Below are positions 55,823 through 64,000 of a stretch of DNA of 64,000 nucleotides, one piece after another (within the stretch, counting starts at the first letter, position 1; every line of letters starts with the position of its first letter). A program made the position numbers and the translations under genes. The stretch comes from an uncultured Burkholderiales bacterium (GTDB lineage: Bacteria > Pseudomonadota > Gammaproteobacteria > Burkholderiales > Burkholderiaceae_C), in assembly GCA_937873395.1 (NCBI GenBank), contig CALMYH010000034.1, positions 1 through 64,000 on the forward strand. Direction: 5' to 3'. Below the pieces are notes generated by a model. That model ran no database searches, was not told the DNA's origin, and was given only the letters and a program-made list of their open reading frames with translations.

Positions 55823-55898
55823 GGGACGTTAGCTCAGTTGGTAGAGCAGCGGACTTTTAATCCGTTGGTCGTGGGTTCGAATCCCTCACGTCCTACCA
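55823..55898 (+). tRNA. tRNA-Lys (anticodon TTT)
   Basis: A 76-nt cloverleaf with acceptor GGGACGT/ACGTCCT, anticodon loop CTTTTAA, T loop TTCGAAT and an encoded CCA. Its 3' end marks the left boundary of the integrated element that fills the rest of the window and is the likely attachment site. Confidence 0.97.
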
Positions 55899-55915
55899 AA
55901 AAATCGAAATGAATC

Positions 55916-55950
55916 AAGCACTTGCGGCATATTTGCCCAAGTGCTTTTTT
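55916..55950 (+). terminator. Intrinsic terminator of tRNA-Lys
   Basis: AAGCACTTG / CAAGTGCTT outer stem (9 bp) with an inner GGCA-TATT-TGCC stem, then a run of T. It begins 17 bases after the tRNA CCA end. Confidence 0.88.
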
Positions 55951-55962
55951 CTTGCCCGAAAG

Positions 55963-55984
55963 CTGGTGACAGTCTGGTGACAGT
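55963..55984 (+). repeat. Two copies of an 11-bp direct repeat (left end), putative integrase arm sites
   Basis: CTGGTGACAGT at 55963-55973 and 55974-55984, adjacent and head to tail. Four further copies lie at the right end of the element upstream of the integrase gene. Confidence 0.65.
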
Positions 55985-56073
55985 CTGACCCATTGGTGTT
56001 GCTTTGGTGCACTCACCAGCGTGTCGTGCGCCTGGTCGACCACCCCTCCCCCTTGTTGGTGGGGCGCATGCGC

Positions 56074-56112
56074 AAAAAAAACCCGCCAGCACATCCGGGG
56101 ACGTGAGGCGGG
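56074..56112 (-). terminator. Intrinsic terminator downstream of the capsid gene
   Basis: On the minus strand CCCGCC (56112-56107) pairs with GGCGGG (56087-56082) around a partly self-pairing loop, followed by eight T residues (56081-56074). It lies 108 bases past the capsid stop and insulates tRNA-Lys from element transcription. Confidence 0.8.
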
Positions 56113-56220
56113 CCATGTTGAAGGTGCCCGTCGCGCGGTCCCTGAACCGCCACGGGCTGTCGATTCACTGCGCCAGCTCGACCGGGCTGGCTTCGGGGCG
56201 GAGCAGCCCTGCAGATTCGT

Positions 56221-57444
56221 TTAGCGGACGCCGGTAACGACTGCGAAGGACTTCGGACGCATCACAGCCACGTCGACACGCGCATGTGCGATGAATGCCA
56301 GTTCCCCGGTAGTGGCGAACGCTTCGCGCAGCAGGCCGATGGAGACGTTCTCGCGCATGACATAGGTCAGTTGCGTGAAGTCCCCCAGGTACAGCTCCGA
56401 ACAATCAGAGCTACCGCCGACCACGAGGTCATTGGGCACGCTGGTCGTGCTCAACATCTGCAGGTTCTCCAGCAGGGCCGGGACGCGCATCGGTTGGTTG
56501 GTGGTGTCCGCCAGTTGCCCGAAGTTGACCAGCGATCGCGGAGACATGATCGCGGCCGTGGGCATCGCGTGATCTGCGGCCAGGATGTCGCGCACCGCGT
56601 TGAACAGCGGACCGTAGTTGGTCAGAACCGCGCCGGCGGCGCCACCGTGTGGCACGATGTGCACGCCAGTCGTGTTGCGGATGCCTCGCGGCTCGGGGTT
56701 GGTGCCACTGCCGCGCAAGCCGGCCCGGTCCATGGCCAGGGCGAACGCCTGCGAAATGACCACATTCAGCGCACGCTCCAGGTCTTGCCCGTCCGCCAGC
56801 AACTCCCGGCTCATCCGGAAGTAGCACGCCAGCGACTTGGGCGCGGCCACCACCGCACGGAAACCCGGATCACTTTCGGCCACAGCTCCACGCTCCAGGC
56901 GCCAGGCCGCGGTGGGCACACTGTCGACGGCGGCGGTCGTGTAGGTCGAGGATGCCTCTATCAGCTCCAGGCGTGCACCCGCGTTGAGCGTCGCCGACTC
57001 TGCCACCATGGCGTCCAGGATGGACGGCGCCAGGCGGCTCGGCACAGTGAAGCCCCCATCCGGACCGCTGCCGGTGCTCAGAGCAGCCCGTACCACGTCG
57101 GACTTGATCTTCATGCCGGCCACCCCTCGCAGGAAGTCGGCCAGCTCGGGCTTGGCGCCCTCGAAGGCTTGCGGGTCGCGTCTGCGGTAGTGCGCCTCGA
57201 ACCGGGACACACCAGGCGCATCGGGCCGTCGGCCGGTCACGCCGGCAGAACCGCCCATTTCGGTACCGGCCTGGCGCACGGCCAGCTCATCGATGCCAGC
57301 CTGCAGGCTCTTCAGCTCGTTGGCGTGGTGGGCCTTGAAGTCGCGGAAGGACTGGCCCAGATCAGCAATCACTTGCTTCACGTCGCCGACTTCAGCGCGG
57401 ACGAATTGCAGGCCGCGCGGGATGGATTTCGGATTGGTCGTCAT
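56221..57444 (-). CDS. HK97-family phage major capsid protein
   Basis: A 407-residue HK97-type (phage_capsid) protein. The N-terminal ~60 residues form a predicted coiled coil (VKQVIADLGQSFRDFKAHHANELKSLQAGIDELA) like the delta/scaffold domain of HK97 gp5. The mature fold follows (LSTGSGPDGGFTVPSRLAPSILDAMVAES; LRGSGTNPEPRGIRNTTGV; AAIMSPRSLVNFGQL; ELYLGDFTQLTYVMRENVSIGL). No prohead protease, portal, terminase or connector gene is in the window. Last gene of the element on the tRNA side, with its own terminator. The ribosome site is weak. Confidence 0.92.
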   Translation of the reverse strand: MTTNPKSIPRGLQFVRAEVGDVKQVIADLGQSFRDFKAHHANELKSLQAGIDELAVRQAGTEMGGSAGVTGRRPDAPGVSRFEAHYRRRDPQAFEGAKPELADFLRGVAGMKIKSDVVRAALSTGSGPDGGFTVPSRLAPSILDAMVAESATLNAGARLELIEASSTYTTAAVDSVPTAAWRLERGAVAESDPGFRAVVAAPKSLACYFRMSRELLADGQDLERALNVVISQAFALAMDRAGLRGSGTNPEPRGIRNTTGVHIVPHGGAAGAVLTNYGPLFNAVRDILAADHAMPTAAIMSPRSLVNFGQLADTTNQPMRVPALLENLQMLSTTSVPNDLVVGGSSDCSELYLGDFTQLTYVMRENVSIGLLREAFATTGELAFIAHARVDVAVMRPKSFAVVTGVR

Positions 57445-57750
57445 TGGAAAATCTTTCAGAAATGAGGTTGGTCTAATCCGCTGTTCTTATCGGGCAGCGC
57501 CGGGCGTACCCTCAATTTGCGGCAGTGGCAGCGCCGGGCGTACCACCTATTCAGAATCCATTCGCAGCGCACGGCATGAAAACGGATCCCGAACCATAAC
57601 CCGCTGTTCTTATCGGGCAGCGCCGGGCGTACCCTCAATTTGCGGCAGTGGCAGCGCACGGCGTACCACCTATTCAGCCCCTGCAACAGCGCACGGCGTG
57701 AATGCAGATCGTGAACGATGAACCCATTCTAAATGGGTTCCGTGTCGAAT
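57445..57750. repeat. Tandem duplication of ~122 bp with six copies of a 14-bp motif
   Basis: Two copies (about 57479-57600 and 57601-57720) share a near-identical first ~77 bases. Inside are six CAGCGC-[C/A]-[C/G]GGC-[G/A]T-[A/G] motifs starting at 57495, 57529, 57565, 57618, 57652 and 57687, spaced 34-36 bases apart (53 at the copy junction). It sits just upstream of the capsid gene. Frames running through it are repetitive and have no ribosome site, so it is treated as non-coding. Confidence 0.75.
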
Positions 57751-58002
57751 TCAAGGGTGCAATTCGTCGAATTCAGCCCAGGCAAGGCGAACCGTTTCCC
57801 CAGTGGGCGCCACCAGGCGCACCTCGATTTCTTGGAGTCCTTGCATGGATGCGGCAGCGACGCAATGGAACGCACAGCCGGCACGGGCTGCCTCTGCTAC
57901 TGCCTTATGGCCTTCGGGATCGGTTTTCCTCAGTTCCAGAAGACATTCGCGCAACAGGTCACGCGCAGCGGTATTGAATCGGGCGATGGCGGCCCCGCTC
58001 AT
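57751..58002 (-). CDS. Small hypothetical protein of the element
   Basis: An 83-residue acidic/neutral protein (MSGAAIARFNTAARDLL...; FHCVAAASMQGLQEIEVRLVAPTGETVRLAWAEFDELHP) with an N-terminal helical part and a beta-rich end. No domain recognised. Its ATG overlaps the stop of the 46-residue ORF by four bases (ATGA), which supports both as real and coupled. Upstream of the capsid gene on the same strand. Confidence 0.65.
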   Translation of the reverse strand: MSGAAIARFNTAARDLLRECLLELRKTDPEGHKAVAEAARAGCAFHCVAAASMQGLQEIEVRLVAPTGETVRLAWAEFDELHP

Positions 58003-58139
58003 TTGATGCCTCGCTTCGCGCGGCGGGCTTGTGAACGCGTCATGCCAAGTTTTCTGAATGCTCGCTCGGCGGCCCGGCGCCGATTTTTCGCGAACCGCAG
58101 CGACGACAGCCAGTCGAGAATAAAAAGCAATGGTTGCAC
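57999..58139 (-). CDS. 46-residue basic protein, small ORF
   Basis: GTG 58139 with an excellent AAAGGAG six to seven bases upstream. The peptide has a hydrophobic start (PLLFILDWLSSLRF) and a basic end (ERAFRKLGMTRSQARRAKRG). The end matches, by eye, the other small ORF at 58261-58356 (ERILRSFGLSRNKASRWARR). The stop overlaps the next start. Function unknown; could be a small DNA- or RNA-binding or capsid-associated peptide. Confidence 0.55.
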   Translation of the reverse strand: MQPLLFILDWLSSLRFAKNRRRAAERAFRKLGMTRSQARRAKRGIK

Positions 58140-58260
58140 AATGAAACTCCTTTGATGCTGATTACGATATGACCCCTCCCCCCCTTCGATAATGCGGTCT
58201 TGCGAAAAGAGGTAACGGGGCGGTCTGGGTTGATGGACGGGGAAACTTTTTCCACCCCCC

Positions 58261-58356
58261 CTATGGGCAGCGCCTGGCCCACCGCGATGCCTTATTGCGG
58301 CTCAGTCCGAATGACCGAAGGATCCGCTCCACATGCCGTCGCCTTACGGCCTTCAT
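58261..58356 (-). CDS. Possible 31-residue basic peptide
   Basis: ATG 58356 with GAGGAA seven bases upstream; peptide MKAVRRRHVERILRSFGLSR then NKASRWARRCP. It shares the pattern E-R-x2-R-x-[FL]-G-[ML]-[ST]-R-x2-A-x-R with the 46-residue ORF downstream. The frame remains open upstream through the GTCGAC repeats, but that part looks non-coding. Very short, so uncertain. Confidence 0.4.
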   Translation of the reverse strand: MKAVRRRHVERILRSFGLSRNKASRWARRCP

Positions 58357-58430
58357 CGGTGTTCCTCGACCGAGAGGCAACAACCACAGCTCCGCCAGCA
58401 GACGCCACGGGCTGGCATCCCTACACACCT

Positions 58431-58570
58431 GTCGACACGTCGACAAAGTCGACAGACTGTCAGCTTCCGCCCGGTGTTCCGCTGCAGGCTCTCTCCCCCC
58501 TCGACACGTCGACAATGTCGACAGACTGCTGTGTGGGGTTTGGGTTTGTCGAGTTTGTCGACGTGTCGAC
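58431..58570. repeat. Three clusters of GTCGAC-triplet repeats (iteron- or operator-like)
   Basis: Cluster A, 58431-58459: GTCGAC-AC-GTCGAC-AAA-GTCGAC then AGACTG. Cluster B, 58500-58528: the same with one change in the first hexamer and AAT instead of AAA. Cluster C, 58545-58570, is inverted: GTCGAG-TTT-GTCGAC-GT-GTCGAC. A and B are 28-base direct repeats with one mismatch, 69 bases apart. They lie immediately downstream of the helicase-like gene of the element. Confidence 0.8.
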
Positions 58571-58649
58571 GGGGTGTTGTGTCTGGGGGCGTAAGTCATT
58601 GAAATAGAAAAAGAAAAGGGCTAAAAATCACTTATAGAGACAGACTCGA

Positions 58650-60236
58650 CTACGTCGACAGGCGCGGATTGACGCGATACACCAATGACGGCGGCGCCCC
58701 TTTGTTGCGTCGCTTTGTCGACCGGACCACGTCGCCGGCCTCCAGTCTGTCGAGGGCCTTCTGTAGACGGTCGACAGACCGGAAGCGCCCTTCCTGGCCC
58801 TTCTGTGCGTCGCGCCTGGTGAACTCCTGCAGGCCGTTGCCTATGACCCAACGAACCACGGCGGCCGCGTCCGAGTCGACGGCATCGGTCCCGAGCAGGC
58901 CAAAGGCGGCGCGGGCGTGTTCGATCAGCAGCCCGCCCAATTGCAGCGACCGGCGCATGGACAGTTCGGACACTTCGTCGGCGGCCAAGCCCATCTCTGC
59001 CAGCTCAAGGATGGCCGCCACGCGGGCCAGTTGGCCGGGTAGCTTGCTGGTCCAGTCGGCGATGGACTCATACACACCGCCCTCGCCCTGCTCGTTCTCG
59101 ATCTGCTGGGCGAAGTCAAACCACAGTTCACGCGCCGGCTCAGTCAGGCTCAACACCTTGGGCTTTCCGACCGGCTCGCCCCAGCCTTCCAGTAGGCCGA
59201 AGATGCCGCGCTTGTAGGCTTCCTGCACATGCTCAGGGATTGGAATGTGTCGGCGCACGTCACGCCGTCCCACCGTTGATTCAGGGATAGCCCACAGAAA
59301 ACGCGCGAGCAAGCCGCTGTCCCTGAATCGCTTCGATCCAGCGACATCAGCCAGCGTGCCAGGCTGCACCAGCAGGCCCATTGACAGCGCCGGCCGGTCA
59401 ATATGAACAGCCCGCGATGCGCGATCGACCCGCATGGACGAACCGGCGTGACCCTGCAGATACACGTCCAGATGCGCCTGGCCGCCCGAGTACAGCCCGC
59501 CCATGATCTGGAAAGAACCAGCCTCATCAGACAGCACAGCCATGCGCTCGCCATGCTCGGCCAGCAGCCCCTGCACCCGCTCGGGGGTGGCGTCGCTGGT
59601 GAACAGGCGCGGCGCCCGGATTTCGTCGGGCTGCGTCAGCTCCTCCTGCTCGATCTCCGCCCGGATGGCTTCGCGTTCGGTCGCGTCCTTGGCTTTCGCA
59701 GCGTCCTGCAGCAGCCGCGCGATCTTCTGCTTCGATACAGCCCGCGCGGCGTTGACGCGTGCAATGTCGCGGCGCATCCGGTCCGCGTTCAGCTTTTCCC
59801 AGCCCACAATCGGCACCTGTATGGCGTGCAACACCGAGCTTTTGCGCGTGCCCGCCGCTGACGCCACAGCACACCAGAGCGGGGTGGGCTCAAAGTAGCC
59901 GGGCACCGGCTCCACCTCATACCTACGCTGCACACACGTTGCCAGCACCGCCAGGCAAGCCAAGACCGCCAGGGCCGGCGGCGTCTGTGTGCTCTCGGAC
60001 ACAGCGCGGGCCATGTCACCGCTCCAGGTCGGCAGAATGTCGGCCGGTATTTCCGGCGTCGTCTGGGTTCCAGGAAGCACCGGCTCGGGCCACTCCTCGA
60101 CCACCTCGCCGGCGGGCGCCGGGCCGGCATCGGGAAAAGCTTCCTCGACAGGCTGCCAGCTGCCGGTCGGGCGGTTCTGGATCTGCCTGTCCAGCTCGGC
60201 GGCATGGTGGGGGTATCGGTCGAACACTCCGGTCAT
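58650..60236 (-). CDS. DUF3987 family helicase-like protein
   Basis: A 528-residue protein starting at MTGVFDRYPHHAAEL (ATG 60236). The DUF3987 region includes LPTWSGDMARAVSESTQTPPALAVLACLAVLATCVQRR, a Walker A-like loop ASAAGTRKSSVLHAI (GK replaced by RK), and LAVLSDEAGSFQIMGGLYSGG resembling Walker B. The C-terminal end carries a winged-helix-like segment (EFTRRDAQKGQEGRFRSVDRLQKALDRL). Such proteins act as replicative helicase or primase-helicase partners in mobile elements. The start overlaps the primase-like gene stop by four bases. Confidence 0.85.
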   Translation of the reverse strand: MTGVFDRYPHHAAELDRQIQNRPTGSWQPVEEAFPDAGPAPAGEVVEEWPEPVLPGTQTTPEIPADILPTWSGDMARAVSESTQTPPALAVLACLAVLATCVQRRYEVEPVPGYFEPTPLWCAVASAAGTRKSSVLHAIQVPIVGWEKLNADRMRRDIARVNAARAVSKQKIARLLQDAAKAKDATEREAIRAEIEQEELTQPDEIRAPRLFTSDATPERVQGLLAEHGERMAVLSDEAGSFQIMGGLYSGGQAHLDVYLQGHAGSSMRVDRASRAVHIDRPALSMGLLVQPGTLADVAGSKRFRDSGLLARFLWAIPESTVGRRDVRRHIPIPEHVQEAYKRGIFGLLEGWGEPVGKPKVLSLTEPARELWFDFAQQIENEQGEGGVYESIADWTSKLPGQLARVAAILELAEMGLAADEVSELSMRRSLQLGGLLIEHARAAFGLLGTDAVDSDAAAVVRWVIGNGLQEFTRRDAQKGQEGRFRSVDRLQKALDRLEAGDVVRSTKRRNKGAPPSLVYRVNPRLST

Positions 60237-60697
60237 GCGAAGTCCTCCACCAGCCTGGTGATGCGGGCGGCGCACACCTTCAGCCTGTCGAAGTCGGCGC
60301 TTGTGAGTCGCCTCCCTGCCGCGATGGTGGCGGCGGCCACGGCGCAGACGGTGGCCTCGAACCCCAGCACCTGCAAGGCGGCACGGGGCGGCAGGGCCGT
60401 CGGCTTCCGGTCGGGTTCCGGCTTGCCATCGTCGACCCAGGCGCCCAGCAGCTTGGCGGCCGTGATGAAGTCCAGGTTGGCGCCCTGCATCTCGTAGGCC
60501 AGCACGTCGCCACCCTTGGCACCGCAGCTCATGCACACCCAGGCCCCGGTGGCTGTGTTGACCCGCATCGAGTCGCTGCCGCCGTGGAAGGTGCAGTTGG
60601 TGGTTTTCCACTTCGCGCGGCGCGGCCCCTTGAGCCTGTGCCCCAGCTCCTCGAAGTAGGTGATCGGGTCGGGCAGTCGGTTGCGGTCGAAGCTCAT
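60233..60697 (-). CDS. CHC2-type zinc-finger primase-like protein
   Basis: A 154-residue protein whose N-terminal half holds a zinc ribbon with C-x2-H spacing in NCTFHGG and C-x2-C in WVCMSCGAKGGDV, as in DnaG/P4 alpha primase zinc domains. No TOPRIM catalytic core is present, so it probably works with the DUF3987 protein, recalling a split P4-like primase-helicase. It overlaps neighbours on both sides by four bases, indicating one translationally coupled operon. Confidence 0.85.
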   Translation of the reverse strand: MSFDRNRLPDPITYFEELGHRLKGPRRAKWKTTNCTFHGGSDSMRVNTATGAWVCMSCGAKGGDVLAYEMQGANLDFITAAKLLGAWVDDGKPEPDRKPTALPPRAALQVLGFEATVCAVAAATIAAGRRLTSADFDRLKVCAARITRLVEDFA

Positions 60698-60972
60698 ACA
60701 GGCGAACCCTCCACCACAGCCAGGAAGGCGCCCAGGTCGTGCGGATGCCCGAACACCCGCGTCTGGGTGTTTCGCGTCAGGTGGTAAGTGGTGCGGCCGT
60801 CATCGGCTCGGCGGACCCGCTGCAACCACCAGCCCCGCCGGGCGAACCGGCCCCGCAGGTCGTCGAACTCGTTGCGGGCCAGCGGCGGCGCGTCTACAAT
60901 CGAGCGGCGTTTTGAATCCTGAGCCGTCGGCGGTGTGTCCAGCACCCCGGCGGCTTTTTCATGGTCGGTCAT
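60694..60972 (-). CDS. Small hypothetical protein of the replication operon
   Basis: A 92-residue protein (ARNEFDDLRGRFARRGWWLQRVRRADDGRTTYHLTRNTQTRVF) with an alpha-beta feel and a polar N-terminus. No domain recognised. Four-base overlaps with the AlpA-like gene upstream and the primase-like gene downstream. Possibly a replication accessory factor. Confidence 0.7.
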   Translation of the reverse strand: MTDHEKAAGVLDTPPTAQDSKRRSIVDAPPLARNEFDDLRGRFARRGWWLQRVRRADDGRTTYHLTRNTQTRVFGHPHDLGAFLAVVEGSPV

Positions 60973-61166
60973 TGCTGGGCCACCTTCCCCTGGGCGTCGC
61001 GCCAGGCGATCAGCTCGGCAACGTCGAAAACGGTGCAGCGCGGCGACAGCTTGCGCGGCTTGGGCATGTCGGGCCGCTCTTTCAGCCAGCGCCAGAAAGT
61101 GGCAACGCCGATGCCCAGCAAAGCGGCTGCCTGTTTCGGCCTTACGGATGGTGTCGGGTAGTGCAT
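60969..61166 (-). CDS. AlpA-like helix-turn-helix regulator/excisionase
   Basis: A 65-residue MerR/AlpA-type DNA-binding protein: VRPKQAAALLGIGVATFWRWLKERPDMPKPRKLSPRCTVFDVAELIAWRDAQ. AlpA proteins activate integrase/excision genes or replication in P4- and PICI-type elements. GAGGG lies five to six bases before the ATG. First gene of a four-gene overlapping operon (alpA, hypothetical, primase-like, DUF3987). A small dyad CCGC-ATCAC-GCGG lies in its leader. Confidence 0.88.
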   Translation of the reverse strand: MHYPTPSVRPKQAAALLGIGVATFWRWLKERPDMPKPRKLSPRCTVFDVAELIAWRDAQGKVAQQ

Positions 61167-61238
61167 TTGAAGCCCTCAGTAATCCCGCGTGATGCGGTAT
61201 GAGTGCGATTCAAAGCACCAAGGGGAAGCAGGCGGCGC

Positions 61239-61895
61239 TTACTTCCCGGTTTTCTTCCTAGCCTTTTGGCCGGCTGCCTTCCAAAGGTCTTTGGTCTGGC
61301 CTTCGTTCAGGTCTTCAACTGCGTCTGGATCGGCGTCCTGGTCTTCAATTCGCCAGCCCGCCGGCACCTTCGTGACGCGAAGCGATGCGGCCGGCGAAGT
61401 CATCAATCCGATCAGCGCATCGTGCTTTTTTATGGCCGGATCAGCCACGCGAAGTTGCGTCAACGTATCGACCAAGAGCTGTCGCACAGGTGATCTTTTG
61501 GCCTGGCGGCCACCGACCGCGCCCGCTGCTTTGCGCTGCTCCTGAGCCGCAGGAAGGGTGGTGTGCACCATGTAGTCAAAGCTGGCGCGAAACCGCAGCG
61601 CGGCAACGTCCAGCCGATCAGCCAGCCAAGACGCGCGGTCCAGTCGGCCGGCCGCAACATGCCGAAGCACGTCTTCAGCAACCTCCACCAGCGCCAGCGC
61701 AGAGTCTCGGCTTTCGGTGTTTCCCGCGCGTTCGATGTACCGCCACAATGGGTCGATCATCTGTGTCTTGATCGACCCTCGAAGCCCGCATGGATCACTC
61801 CGGACCAGCTCGCAGACGTGATCCAGCTCTGGAAGCAGATTGGCCACCACCAGCCTGGCATCGGGCTGCCGGCTGGTGGCTTTTGGCTTAATCAT
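61239..61895 (-). CDS. Hypothetical protein of the element
   Basis: A 218-residue, mostly helical, soluble protein (LVVANLLPELDHVCELVRSD; SALALVEVAEDVLRHVAAGRLDRASWLADRLDVAALRFRASFDYM) with a basic C-terminus (AAGQKARKKTGK). No domain recognised. Its start overlaps the preceding gene by eight bases. It separates the integrase side from the replication operon. Confidence 0.75.
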   Translation of the reverse strand: MIKPKATSRQPDARLVVANLLPELDHVCELVRSDPCGLRGSIKTQMIDPLWRYIERAGNTESRDSALALVEVAEDVLRHVAAGRLDRASWLADRLDVAALRFRASFDYMVHTTLPAAQEQRKAAGAVGGRQAKRSPVRQLLVDTLTQLRVADPAIKKHDALIGLMTSPAASLRVTKVPAGWRIEDQDADPDAVEDLNEGQTKDLWKAAGQKARKKTGK

Positions 61896-62403
61896 GGCTC
61901 AATGCCTTCCTCCGTCGGCCGCCACGGCGCGGCATGGTCGGCGCAACGATGGCGGTCAGCTTGTCCTGAAACCACCGATCCTGCATCGCATCGACATGTT
62001 GAAGCGTGACCGTCCGCCATTCAGCAGATGCGCGGCGTTGAATCTCCCGCTTCTCCTCGAGTTCGCAGAGGGCGTCCCGCTCCCATGGTGTATGACCGTC
62101 TATCCGCAAGATGCGCAACAGGTAGAAGCGCCCCGCCGGCAGGAACCCGAACAATCTGCGGAGACAAGTGGGGCTTTGCGCCCACAGGCAGTACGTCAAC
62201 AGGCCTTCATCCCACCTTGTCGCGCGAGTACCTTTCGGGCGCTTTTGCTCCAGGTCAGAAAAGCCCTCCGCCGATAGCTGGTCCAGAGTGCCGATCAGGT
62301 CCACGGAATCGAACCGGCGCATCTTGATGATCAGGTCGGTCTCTGCGAGATGCACTCGCAGTTCGCGCCGGGGGTCAATTGCTTTAGAGTCGCACTCAGC
62401 CAT
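61888..62403 (-). CDS. Hypothetical protein of the element
   Basis: A 171-residue protein from ATG 62403 with AAGGAG seven bases upstream. Segments such as RWDEGLLTYCLWAQSPTCLRRLFGFLP and WRTVTLQHVDAMQDRWFQDKLTAIVAP; basic C-terminal end (PRRGGRRRKALSHD). No domain recognised. Base composition appears a little lower in GC than the chromosomal genes. Possibly an accessory (interference or helper-control) gene; this is only inferred from position. Confidence 0.72.
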   Translation of the reverse strand: MAECDSKAIDPRRELRVHLAETDLIIKMRRFDSVDLIGTLDQLSAEGFSDLEQKRPKGTRATRWDEGLLTYCLWAQSPTCLRRLFGFLPAGRFYLLRILRIDGHTPWERDALCELEEKREIQRRASAEWRTVTLQHVDAMQDRWFQDKLTAIVAPTMPRRGGRRRKALSHD

Positions 62404-62427
62404 TTTCAAGCTCCTTCTTGAAGGTGG

Positions 62428-62511
62428 TCAGGGGTCGGTCAGTGTTACCGCACTGTCCGGCCCCGCCTTTTTGCCCTGGGTGAAACGCGCCAGGGCATCG
62501 CGGTTTTTCAT
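62428..62511 (-). CDS. Possible 27-residue peptide coupled to the integrase gene
   Basis: ATG 62511 overlaps the integrase stop (ATGA). The peptide begins MKNRDALARFTQGKKAGPDS and ends at 62428, 11 bases before the ribosome site of the next gene. Its length makes it uncertain, but it fills the only gap in the operon. Confidence 0.4.
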   Translation of the reverse strand: MKNRDALARFTQGKKAGPDSAVTLTDP

Positions 62512-63824
62512 GCGGCCTTGAACGGCACCACCTTGCCCGACTTGGGCGCGGTCAAGAGCCGGTGCAGGGTTTCCAGCGCCTGCCGCTTTTCGTCCATGTA
62601 GTCGTGCCCGTCATAGTGGCGGGCCTGCACTCCGCTGATGCCGTGCGACTGCAGGCGGCCCCGTATCTCGGAGCTGATACGGGCGCCGGCCAGCAGGGTT
62701 TCCACACCAGAGCGGACGCGCTTGGCGCGGAACTCGGCGATCTGGTCGCCGGCCGCCTCCACGGCCCAGGCGCTCAAGGTGGTGGCGGCCAGGTGCGTTT
62801 CCCCCTTGTCGGTCGATAGGGCATAGGTGCCTTGGGGCCTGCATTCCAGCAGCGCCGATGCAGCGGCCGGGATCAGTGGGATCGTGTGCGGGCGTGGCGG
62901 CTTTCCGGGCCTGCCCTTGCCGTCGAACAGCATGATGGCGGTGCCGCTCACGTTCTCGGTGCGCAGGTTCACCAGCTGCTCGATGCGCTGCCCACCCGTC
63001 AGCAGGTGCAGCCGCAGCACCGCCCCTTTGAAGCCGGGCATGGCCTTGATGATGCTCCAGTAGGTGCGCAGCTCCTCCGCCGTCAGCGGGCGCTTGTCGG
63101 CCTTGTTCGCGGATTCGTCCGGCTCGGTGTCGGCGGCCGGGTTGCTGGTGATCTGGTAGCTCTTGAATCTCACCGGGATGCTGGCCTTGGATCGGGCCGC
63201 CTTCGCGGTCTGGTAGGCGGCTCGGACGTAGGAGCGCAGCTTGTTGGCCGTGCGCCCTTTGCCCAGCTCCAGGGATCGGCGCATCATGTCGGCGACCTGC
63301 TCGGCAGTCACGTCCCGAGCGGGCAGGGCGGCCACGGCCGGCCAGGGTTCGAAGATGTGCTTCTTGAAAACTGACCGGGCATCCTTGTGGGCGCGGCGGC
63401 CCAGCGCCTCCAAATGGTCGCAGTAGTCGGTCAGCAGGGTTTCCAGGGTGTACTTTCGGGCATCTTCGGCCGCTGCCGCTGCCGATGCCCTGGCCGATCT
63501 TTCCGATGCCTTGAGGGCCACGTGTCCCCCTTGCTCGCGGTGCTCGTGGTGGCGCTGGGCCAGCGCCTCCGCAGCCCGCTCGGCAGCCTTCACCGAATAC
63601 CCGCGCTCGGTCGGCTTGAGGCTCTTGGGGCTGGCGCTCGGGTCATAGACCCCGACGGGTTCCCGCAGGGTCTTGCCGTCCACCGTCACGCGCCAGTAAA
63701 GCATGGTGCCGCCGCTGGCCAGCTTGCGGGCCTCCAGCGACCCGGACGGGATCACTTTGGTCAGGCGGGTGAACTGGCCGGGCGCCAGTGTGGCGATGAT
63801 CTGGCCGGGTGTTTTTACGTCCAT
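62508..63824 (-). CDS. int: Tyrosine recombinase (phage-type integrase)
   Basis: A 438-residue integrase from ATG 63824 (GGAG seven bases upstream). N-terminal arm-binding DUF4102-like part (YWRVTVDGKTLREPVGVYD), core-binding SAM-like part (YTLETLLTDYCDHLEALGRRAHKDARSVFKKHI) and catalytic domain: Arg in LLTGGQRIEQL, Arg in AKRVRSGVETLL, His in LQSHGISGVQARHYDGHDYM with the nucleophile Tyr nearby. The family often targets tRNA genes. It is transcribed toward the element interior; its leader contains the 11-bp repeats. Confidence 0.93.
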   Translation of the reverse strand: MDVKTPGQIIATLAPGQFTRLTKVIPSGSLEARKLASGGTMLYWRVTVDGKTLREPVGVYDPSASPKSLKPTERGYSVKAAERAAEALAQRHHEHREQGGHVALKASERSARASAAAAAEDARKYTLETLLTDYCDHLEALGRRAHKDARSVFKKHIFEPWPAVAALPARDVTAEQVADMMRRSLELGKGRTANKLRSYVRAAYQTAKAARSKASIPVRFKSYQITSNPAADTEPDESANKADKRPLTAEELRTYWSIIKAMPGFKGAVLRLHLLTGGQRIEQLVNLRTENVSGTAIMLFDGKGRPGKPPRPHTIPLIPAAASALLECRPQGTYALSTDKGETHLAATTLSAWAVEAAGDQIAEFRAKRVRSGVETLLAGARISSEIRGRLQSHGISGVQARHYDGHDYMDEKRQALETLHRLLTAPKSGKVVPFKAA

Positions 63825-63847
63825 GTACAGCTCCAAAAAGCCGGCTG

Positions 63848-63987
63848 CTGGTGACAGTTTTCCCGAGTCCGTTTGTGGCTCTGGTGACAGTCTGGTGACA
63901 GTTTTCGGCGAGATGAAATTGTACGCTAACGGACTAAATGAGACAACATGTATATGAAAATCAACGGGTTAGCGATCTGGTGACAGT
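63848..63987 (+). repeat. Four copies of the 11-bp direct repeat (right end), putative integrase arm sites
   Basis: CTGGTGACAGT at 63848-63858, 63881-63891, 63892-63902 and 63977-63987, same orientation as the two left-end copies. The middle pair is back to back exactly as on the left. An inverted pair CGCTAAC (63924-63930) / GTTAGCG (63968-63974) lies among them. Confidence 0.7.
63918..63946 (-). promoter_or_regulatory. Sigma-70-type promoter of the integrase gene
   Basis: On the minus strand TTGTCT (63946-63941), 17 bases, TACAAT (63923-63918). Spacing is ideal and the -10 is one base from consensus. Three arm-type repeats lie between it and the integrase start, so integrase binding could repress its own gene. 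Confidence 0.65.
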
Positions 63988-64000
63988 CTCAGAAAATCTC

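What the first reader, a model, noticed from the sequence alone, without database searches (positions are those of the whole stretch)
55899..64000. Very small phage-satellite-like element at tRNA-Lys that carries its own capsid gene
Seen: int, a tiny ORF, two unknown genes, alpA, an unknown gene, a CHC2 zinc primase domain, a DUF3987 helicase-like gene, a repeat region, small ORFs and an HK97-type capsid gene, all on one strand, starting at a tRNA 3' end. Known: P4-like and PICI satellites use an int-alpA-primase/helicase layout, and capsid-forming PICIs carry capsid genes along with other packaging genes. Inference: a reduced satellite of ~8 kb that supplies only the capsid shell and takes portal, protease, terminase and tail from a helper phage.
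Basis: partly seen in the sequence, partly recalled or inferred. Interest (0 to 1): 0.78.

Follow-up and report, generated by a model that had tools for sequence, protein, structure and literature searches.

The report
Tiny phage satellite with own capsid
This is a complete 8-kilobase parasite of bacterial viruses that sits in a tRNA gene and carries one virus shell gene but no other recognised virus-building gene; it belongs to a family of similar elements found in many environmental bacteria.

Summary
A complete 8.17-kb integrative element lies between attL (55852-55899, the 3' part of tRNA-Lys) and an identical 48-bp attR at contig position 64019-64066, just past the window. Its genes run on the minus strand: integrase, two unknown genes, AlpA, a small gene, a CHC2 protein, a DUF3987 helicase, small ORFs, and an HK97-type major capsid protein (MCP). 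No portal, terminase, protease or tail gene was recognised in it. A prophage remnant is unlikely: in the tree its MCP lies in a group of 29 (support 100/100). Of these, 27 show no portal or large terminase in the DNA held; the other two are satellites inside the large-terminase gene of a prophage. Fifteen of the 29, the window's included, are bounded by att repeats (7.8-10.5 kb, tRNA genes of six amino acids; eight of the repeats are short). The layout is that of Gram-negative PICIs. Satellite capsid homologues are known (SaPIbov5 Ccm, PmCI172, EcCICFT073) and cf-PICIs carry a whole head module, so this is a new variant of a known kind. Best reading: the MCP redirects or builds a small head on a helper phage's portal, terminase and tail. 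Satellite status is well supported; what the MCP does is inferred.

The parts
55823..55898 (+). tRNA-Lys (ttt), integration target; stays complete at the left end
   Evidence: ARAGORN
55852..55899 (.). attL core, 48 bp, identical copy (attR) at contig position 64019-64066 beyond the window
55963..55984 (.). two copies of CTGGTGACAGT just inside attL (putative integrase arm sites)
   Evidence: six copies in the window, all at the two element ends
56221..57444 (-). HK97-type major capsid protein, 407 aa, open frame, with N-terminal helical delta-like region; last gene of the element
   Evidence: Pfam PF05065 7e-37; PHROG_10; AlphaFold model pLDDT 87, Foldseek HK97-type capsids
57474..57677 (.). 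81-nt repeat present twice, 123 nt apart, between capsid gene and upstream small ORF
57751..58002 (-). 83-aa protein of unknown function; relatives upstream of the MCP in 8 of 36 other elements searched
58431..58660 (.). eight GTCGAC repeats, seven on one side and one on the other of a 59% A+T stretch (58572-58653); putative replication origin 3' of the helicase gene
   Evidence: the same motif is repeated in the same place in L089
58650..60236 (-). DUF3987 helicase-like replication protein (528 aa from probable start; ORF extends to 60611)
   Evidence: Pfam 4.7e-95, PHROG_2373 DNA helicase; start
60233..60697 (-). CHC2 zinc-finger primase-type protein
60694..60972 (-). 92-aa unknown protein; a 54-aa ORF of L089 is 72% identical
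60969..61166 (-). AlpA-type regulator/excisionase
   Evidence: Pfam PF05930 2.6e-5; 57-68% identical relatives in L032, L050, L072
61239..61895 (-). 218-aa protein, unknown
   Evidence: no Pfam or PHROG match at E<=0.01
61888..62409 (-). 173-aa protein, unknown
   Evidence: no Pfam or PHROG match at E<=0.01
62508..63836 (-). tyrosine-type integrase
   Evidence: PHROG_1 1.3e-23; Pfam Phage_int_M 2.4e-4, below its cut-off
63848..63991 (.). four copies of CTGGTGACAGT just inside attR (putative integrase arm sites)

Best explanation
The element is a Gram-negative PICI-type phage satellite. Integrase and AlpA excise it from tRNA-Lys, and its own CHC2/DUF3987 proteins replicate it from an iteron origin just 3' of the helicase gene (roles inferred from families and position). 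When a helper phage is present, the satellite expresses its own HK97-fold capsid protein. That protein diverts head assembly toward a small head matched to its ~8-kb genome, either as a complete satellite shell or by co-assembly with the helper's coat protein. Portal, large terminase, maturation protease (in the window's version) and tail come from the helper. Shown here: element ends, gene content, no recognised portal or large terminase, conservation, purifying selection on the capsid gene in relatives, two relatives embedded in a prophage terminase gene. Inferred: induction, packaging, head size.
For: Ends: 48-bp att duplication; arm-site repeats only at the two ends; an empty site in a same-genus genome matching 1-781 of the 800 joined flank bases, flanks abutting at the core with no element match. 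Family: MCP group of 29 rows, support 100 in the quick tree of 69 rows and 100/100 in a careful tree without the four longest rows. 27 of the 29 have no portal or TerL found in the DNA held; the same detection finds both in 16 loci outside the group, 14 of them not used as seeds. Fifteen of the 29 are bounded by att repeats, 7.8-10.5 kb. Scans of 49 genes (mostly those past the MCP) and 37 replication or unknown genes from the elements gave replication proteins, small terminase and tape-measure families; the complete Pfam list for the 37 has no TerL or portal. Function kept: MCP dN/dS 0.05-0.15 in five usable pairs of relatives; full-length HK97-type fold predicted. Helper link: in L088 and L092 the satellite sits inside the large-terminase gene of a prophage; L092's TerL pieces are 91% and 94% identical to Burkholderia phage Bcep176. 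Two other element-bearing genomes, G089 and G374, hold portal and TerL genes on other contigs, possible helpers. Regulation: C4 RNA in L050, int-alpA RNA in L033.
Against: No induction, particle or transfer was observed. The window's genome has no PF04860 portal or PF03354 terminase, so no resident helper of that type was found. A capsid gene was reported as not required for transfer of the E. coli PICI (PMC10111431 introduction). SaPIbov5 Ccm cannot form capsids alone (PMC8569155, PMC5052747 passages). The window's element has no recognised TerS and no C4 or int-alpA RNA. Outside the group of 29, 16 of 40 tree rows also showed no portal or TerL: five are bounded elements, the rest unresolved, so the detection may miss some divergent genes. 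Several relatives are decayed: L054/G272 (two stops), L080 (broken capsid frame), L084 (partial), L069 (capsid next to a tRNA, no integrase or replication genes seen).
Confidence: 0.72

Rival explanations
1. Ccm-like mechanism (a narrower form of the main reading): the satellite MCP is not a shell protein by itself but a minor coat protein that replaces helper coat protein at pentamers and forces a smaller helper-made head.
For: Direct precedent: SaPIbov5 Ccm, an HK97-fold homologue of the helper coat protein, occupies pentamers of a T=4 procapsid (PMC8569155, abstract and passages). In L088 satellite and prophage MCPs are related at 25% identity; Ccm and phi12 CP are about 19% identical in the fold domain (PMC5052747 passage).
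Against: Members L033, L070, L078, L090 and L091 carry the MCP in a longer protein (518-602 aa) with a prohead-protease region (S78 found by Pfam in L033; the others by length and homology to L033). L089 has the two as neighbouring ORFs, separate genes or a split fusion. This suggests the protein can mature its own shell.
Confidence: 0.35
2. The capsid gene is an anti-helper weapon or passenger: it poisons helper head assembly or is cargo, and the satellite DNA travels in ordinary helper heads, as concatemers.
For: EcCICFT073 DNA is packaged in phage-sized heads although it encodes a capsid homologue (PMC6092414 passages); PICMIs package concatemers (PMC10803314 passages).
Against: Narrow size range and a capsid lineage that is nearly satellite-only and under purifying selection argue for a role in packaging. 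The elements were found through this gene, so how often it is absent from such elements is unknown.
Confidence: 0.2
3. Decayed prophage that happens to keep integrase, replication genes and capsid.
For: Capsid and integrase are phage-type; some relatives are visibly decayed (L054, L080, L084, L069).
Against: Exact att repeats and arm sites at both ends, conserved order and size in bounded relatives, MCP group of 29, low dN/dS.
Confidence: 0.03
4. The MCP forms a host-benefit nanocompartment (encapsulin-like) or gene-transfer-agent-like particle rather than a satellite head.
For: The best solved-structure sequence match is the Rhodobacter capsulatus GTA capsid protein (6tba, 5.7e-14); an encapsulin is among the Foldseek hits.
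Against: Bounded members are mobile elements with integrase and replication genes; TerS, protease and tape-measure genes occur beside the MCP in relatives; two elements lie inside a prophage terminase gene.
Confidence: 0.04

Closest known systems
Gram-negative PICIs, e.g. EcCICFT073 and PmCI172 (PMC6092414; PMC10111431)
   Same: Integrase pointing inward, alpA, primase, origin 3' of the replication gene with iterons, one direction of transcription, late zone often with a capsid gene (21 of 29 reference PICIs as stated in PMC10111431); PmCI172 encodes an MCP homologue and makes small capsids.
   Different: Those described are Gammaproteobacterial and 10-20 kb; here the named hosts are mainly Betaproteobacteria (deeper relatives: alpha- and gammaproteobacterial records and a Desulfobacteraceae MAG), the bounded elements are 7.8-10.5 kb, their HK97-family MCPs form one group in the tree, and the replication genes are CHC2/DUF3987 or other types.
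SaPIbov5 Ccm (PMC5052747, PMC8569155)
   Same: Satellite-borne HK97-fold coat-protein homologue with delta-like N-terminal region.
   Different: Gram-positive; Ccm is shown to sit in pentamers only; direct sequence kinship was not tested here; some relatives of the window's MCP carry a fused protease.
Capsid-forming PICIs (definition as given in PMC10690885 passages)
   Same: Satellite supplies capsid protein and takes the tail from a helper (inferred here).
   Different: cf-PICIs carry MCP, protease, portal, connectors, both terminase subunits and HNH; in the window's element only the MCP is recognised.
Helper-embedded PICIs (PMC10111431)
   Same: [quoted passage not shown] the founding example carries its own capsid gene.
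   Different: Those are from Enterobacteriaceae with one integrase clade; L088 and L092 here lie in Bcep176-like terminase genes, and the word Burkholderia does not occur in that paper's main text.
PICMI (PMC10803314)
   Same: Very small satellite of integrase, regulator and replication genes.
   Different: PICMIs encode no capsid remodelling genes and package concatemers in unchanged helper heads.

Membership tests
Gram-negative PICI | Integrase at one end, att repeats in a host gene | tested here: met
Gram-negative PICI | alpA between integrase and replication genes | tested here: met
   (PF05930 24.4 bits, cut-off 21)
Gram-negative PICI | Own replication gene followed by iterons flanking an A+T-rich stretch | tested here: met
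   for the window; among 14 other such regions a strongly repeated 8-mer was found in 5 (at most 5 of 200 shuffles as high); function not tested
Gram-negative PICI | One transcription direction, integrase pointing inward | tested here: met
Gram-negative PICI | Homology to reference PICI genes (EcCICFT073, PmCI172) | not tested
   reference sequences not compared
Gram-negative PICI | Induction by a helper phage and packaging into phage-like particles | not testable with these tools
   needs culture work
Capsid-forming PICI | MCP plus protease, portal, connectors, TerL, TerS, HNH | tested here: not met
   window: MCP only; relatives: TerS or protease in some, no TerL or portal of their own found
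Ccm-type capsid redirector | HK97-fold coat-protein homologue on a satellite | tested here: met
Ccm-type capsid redirector | Occupies pentamers and needs helper coat protein | not testable with these tools
   needs cryo-EM and helper
P4-like satellite | P4 sid/psu/delta-type genes (recalled) | tested here: not met
   no such Pfam or PHROG match among 10 ORFs at E<=0.01
PICMI | No capsid gene | tested here: not met
Temperate prophage | Portal, terminase, tail and lysis genes within the att sites | tested here: not met
   no PF04860 or PF03354 anywhere in the genome

The most novel reading that the evidence does not exclude
A multi-class family of 8-10-kb satellites that encode mainly the parts that set virion dimensions. 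The MCP forms a dedicated very small shell for a single 8-10-kb genome (volume scaling from HK97, T=7 and about 40 kb by recall, points to T=3). In some members (L081, L093, L094, an N-terminal fragment in L074) a tape-measure protein follows the MCP and would set tail length as well, while portal, terminase and tail parts are helper-made.
Probability: 0.35. Interest if true: 0.82.

Novelty: new variant of a known kind. Interest (0 to 1): 0.62.

Why it matters
It extends capsid-carrying phage satellites from the Gram-positive, enterobacterial and Pasteurellaceae examples in the papers seen to environmental Betaproteobacteria and beyond. The family has its own capsid lineage, a narrow genome size, and members with and without a fused protease. 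That makes it a natural series for asking how much of a virion a satellite must encode, and whether its coat protein builds a shell or only redirects one. Two embedded members point at a concrete helper type (Bcep176-like prophages).

Tried and rejected
Ordinary or decayed prophage: rejected by the attR position, flank contents and conserved family. cf-PICI label: rejected because no portal, terminase or protease was recognised in the window's element. Single-sequence scans of genome contigs and viral contigs with the window MCP found nothing; the alignment query found 26 and 13 loci, several being records already held under other names. First structure model (8 sequences) had pLDDT 47 and was not used; the 36-sequence model was used. 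One dN/dS pair (L033/L089) was an artefact of a stop at the start of the L089 range and was dropped; L062/L064 has saturated synonymous sites. Eleven loci were left out of the MCP tree: five as duplicates (L060, L063, L065, L066, L087) and six as partial, broken or short (L054, L059, L077, L080, L084, L095). The careful tree also leaves out the four rows with the longest end branches, L118, L121, L125 and L128. The 83-aa gene as a universal partner of the MCP: rejected, found in 9 of 37 elements including the window. L093's tape-measure protein finds no tblastn match at 1e-4 in L094, L074 or L081, so those genes are of the same kind by PHROG profiles but not closely related. PADLOC: nothing convincing in four window proteins. 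Literature: no description of this family seen in searches; most subscription papers and bioRxiv preprints are not held, so this is weak evidence of absence. The original cf-PICI paper was not read; its definition is taken from PMC10690885.
Full report
Observation. The window ends 66 bases short of a complete element. The 48 bases 55852-55899, the 3' part of tRNA-Lys, recur exactly at contig 64019-64066; the contig ends at 64073. The next contig (C112, reversed) begins with the same 48 bases and continues, in the 10 kb looked at, with genes that by reading are ordinary chromosomal ones. The two contigs share exactly 55 bases, starting at the first base of the att core. That is where an assembly graph would branch if reads of the empty site were present; this is inference. 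Among 100 related genomes searched with the 800-base joined flanks, the same-genus genome G018 matches across the junction, 76% identity over bases 1-781; its flanks abut at the core and the element has no match there. The 11-mer CTGGTGACAGT occurs six times in 64 kb, all just inside the two element ends and all in one orientation, as integrase arm sites would.

Gene content. From the attR end to the tRNA, all on the minus strand: integrase, 173-aa and 218-aa unknowns, AlpA, 92-aa unknown, CHC2 protein, DUF3987 helicase, short ORFs, 83-aa unknown, HK97-type MCP. Just 3' of the helicase gene are eight GTCGAC repeats, seven on one side and one on the other of an 82-base stretch of 59% A+T against 36% for the element. 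L089, an IMG/VR contig whose DUF3987 protein is 83% identical, repeats the same motif at the same place. Of the 15 such regions tested, six including these two hold an 8-mer whose count was reached by at most 5 of 200 shuffles. Gram-negative PICIs have their origin at this position, with iterons flanking an A+T-rich stretch (PMC6092414, section 6, read).

Relatives. With the MCP alone, 16 of 197 related genomes gave matches at E<=0.001. With alignments, matches at E<=1e-25 were 13 of 399 in the family, 8 of 399 in the order and 5 of 398 in the phylum. Each count includes the window's own genome, the samples overlap in part, and many of the weaker matches proved to be ordinary phage-type loci. 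The contig collections gave 26 and 13 loci. One of them, L066, has the length and match of contig G051:C86 of a same-genus genome and is titled Hydrogenophaga, so the window's host is probably that genus. Gene maps repeat one plan: tRNA or att, integrase, usually an AlpA/HTH gene, a primase/helicase of varying family, small genes, MCP, and little beyond it. Fifteen members of the MCP group are bounded by att repeats, 7.8-10.5 kb. In seven the repeat is strong (E below 1e-3). In eight it is short (14-23 bases, E 0.007-0.03) but at the tRNA 3' end; in one of these, L032, a better match lies farther out. Targets are tRNAs for Lys, Leu, Ser, Arg, Thr and Ala; one more member, L033, starts beside tRNA-Gly but its other end is not held. 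Five more distant relatives (records named Gammaproteobacteria, Novosphingobium, Parvularculaceae, Desulfobacteraceae, and same-family genome G336) are bounded at 8.7-10.5 kb, four by strong repeats. The elements were found through their MCP, so how often such elements lack it is unknown.

Capsid lineage. Portal, TerL, MCP and protease were sought by iterated profiles in the fetched loci. Sixteen loci outside the group have both portal and TerL near the MCP, 14 of them not used as seeds, so the method works for common types. In the 69-row MCP tree the window falls in a group of 29 with SH-aLRT 100 (quick method); a careful tree of 65 rows gives the same split 100/100. 27 of 29 show neither gene in the DNA held; for about a third of these the contig is short or cut on one side. 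The other two, L088 and L092, are the embedded cases below. Of the 40 rows outside the group, 24 have a portal or TerL (five of them named phages, by annotation) and 16 have neither found: five are the bounded distant relatives above, the others are contig ends, unbounded loci or possible misses and were not resolved.

Other genes of the elements. The 37 replication-type and unknown genes scanned match 19 Pfam families at E<=0.001, the complete list, among them AAA_25, Toprim, DUF5906, DUF3987 and D5_N but no terminase or portal; PHROGs' first 25 of 65 families likewise have none. The set was a large part, not all, of the long ORFs: L052's helicase was scanned later (replication-type) and a 447-aa ORF of L081 has no PHROG match. 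Among 49 genes, mostly past the MCP, terminase small-subunit families matched up to three members each; only the first 25 of 113 PHROGs and 25 of 41 Pfam families are listed, none of those a large terminase or portal. Single scans place TerS in L032, L062, L081 and L091 and tape-measure proteins in L074 (fragment), L081, L093 and L094.

Helper link. In L088 and L092 the satellite interrupts a prophage large-terminase gene at about codon 93. L092's two pieces are 91% and 94% identical to Bcep176 TerL, L088's 63% and 62%. L088's prophage has its own TerS, portal, protease and MCP; its MCP is 25% identical to the satellite's. L088's element shares 89% nucleotide identity over 4.3 kb with L085's, which sits in tRNA-Arg. 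Terminase-site helper-embedded PICIs are known from Enterobacteriaceae (PMC10111431: passages, abstract, sections 3 and 20). No PF04860 portal or PF03354 terminase was found in the window's genome or in G115, G443 and G291, so any helper there is external or of another type; G089 and G374 have both on other contigs.

Function of the capsid gene. MCP dN/dS is 0.047, 0.087, 0.145, 0.147 and 0.154 in five usable pairs of relatives. The 36-sequence model has pLDDT 87, with an N-terminal helical region and an HK97-type fold. Five members of the group have the MCP fused to a protease region and L089 has it as the neighbouring ORF, which favours a self-maturing shell; the window's version has no protease. 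Precedents differ. Ccm of SaPIbov5 fills pentamers only and cannot make shells alone (PMC8569155 abstract and passages; PMC5052747 passages). PmCI172 carries an MCP homologue and makes small heads, while EcCICFT073 carries one and uses full-size heads (PMC6092414 passages); per PMC10111431's introduction such genes are not required for transfer. So a role in head-size redirection or shell formation is the best inference, not a result.

Verdict. A complete PICI-type satellite with a single recognised structural gene, one of a family not found described in the searches made. New variant of a known kind.

Noticed in passing
G000:C6:15000-34900 (L011): The same genome holds a second satellite-like element beside tRNA-Arg: integrase-like gene (by reading), CHC2 protein 77% identical to the window's, DUF3987-type gene, int-alpA RNA, and a DUF5681 protein, but no capsid gene found. 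A third CHC2/DUF3987 copy lies on the 4.6-kb contig C157 (L012).
   Followed up: partly
window 62398-62467 (+): symR-like RNA fold overlapping the start of the 173-aa gene on the opposite strand, 35.5 bits against a cut-off of 61, E 7e-4; could be an antisense regulator or chance.
   Followed up: partly
L091 (IMG/VR contig, 8718 bp): 127-base terminal repeat suggests a circular 8.6-kb form with a ParA-like partition gene, a TerS and a protease-MCP fusion but no integrase seen: a possible plasmid-like relative.
   Followed up: partly
L093, L094, L081, L074: Relatives with tape-measure proteins, or an N-terminal fragment of one, just after the MCP; L081 has MCP, tape measure and TerS in 8.8 kb.
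   Followed up: partly
L074 1238-3410: A different element sits at what by reading is the same chromosomal place as the window's: the same YeeE-like and ThiF/MoeB-like neighbours upstream of tRNA-Lys, so this site seems to be reused.
   Followed up: no
L062 719-3997: A 1092-aa ORF that by reading resembles Cas9 lies next to the tRNA-Leu used by that satellite.
   Followed up: no
L072 11165-14247: After the MCP this element carries several further genes, one matching tail-fibre families; it is the longest bounded member of the group (10.5 kb).
   Followed up: partly
window 57999-58139 and 58261-58354: Two short ORF ends with a similar basic motif upstream of the capsid gene, seen by eye.
   Followed up: no
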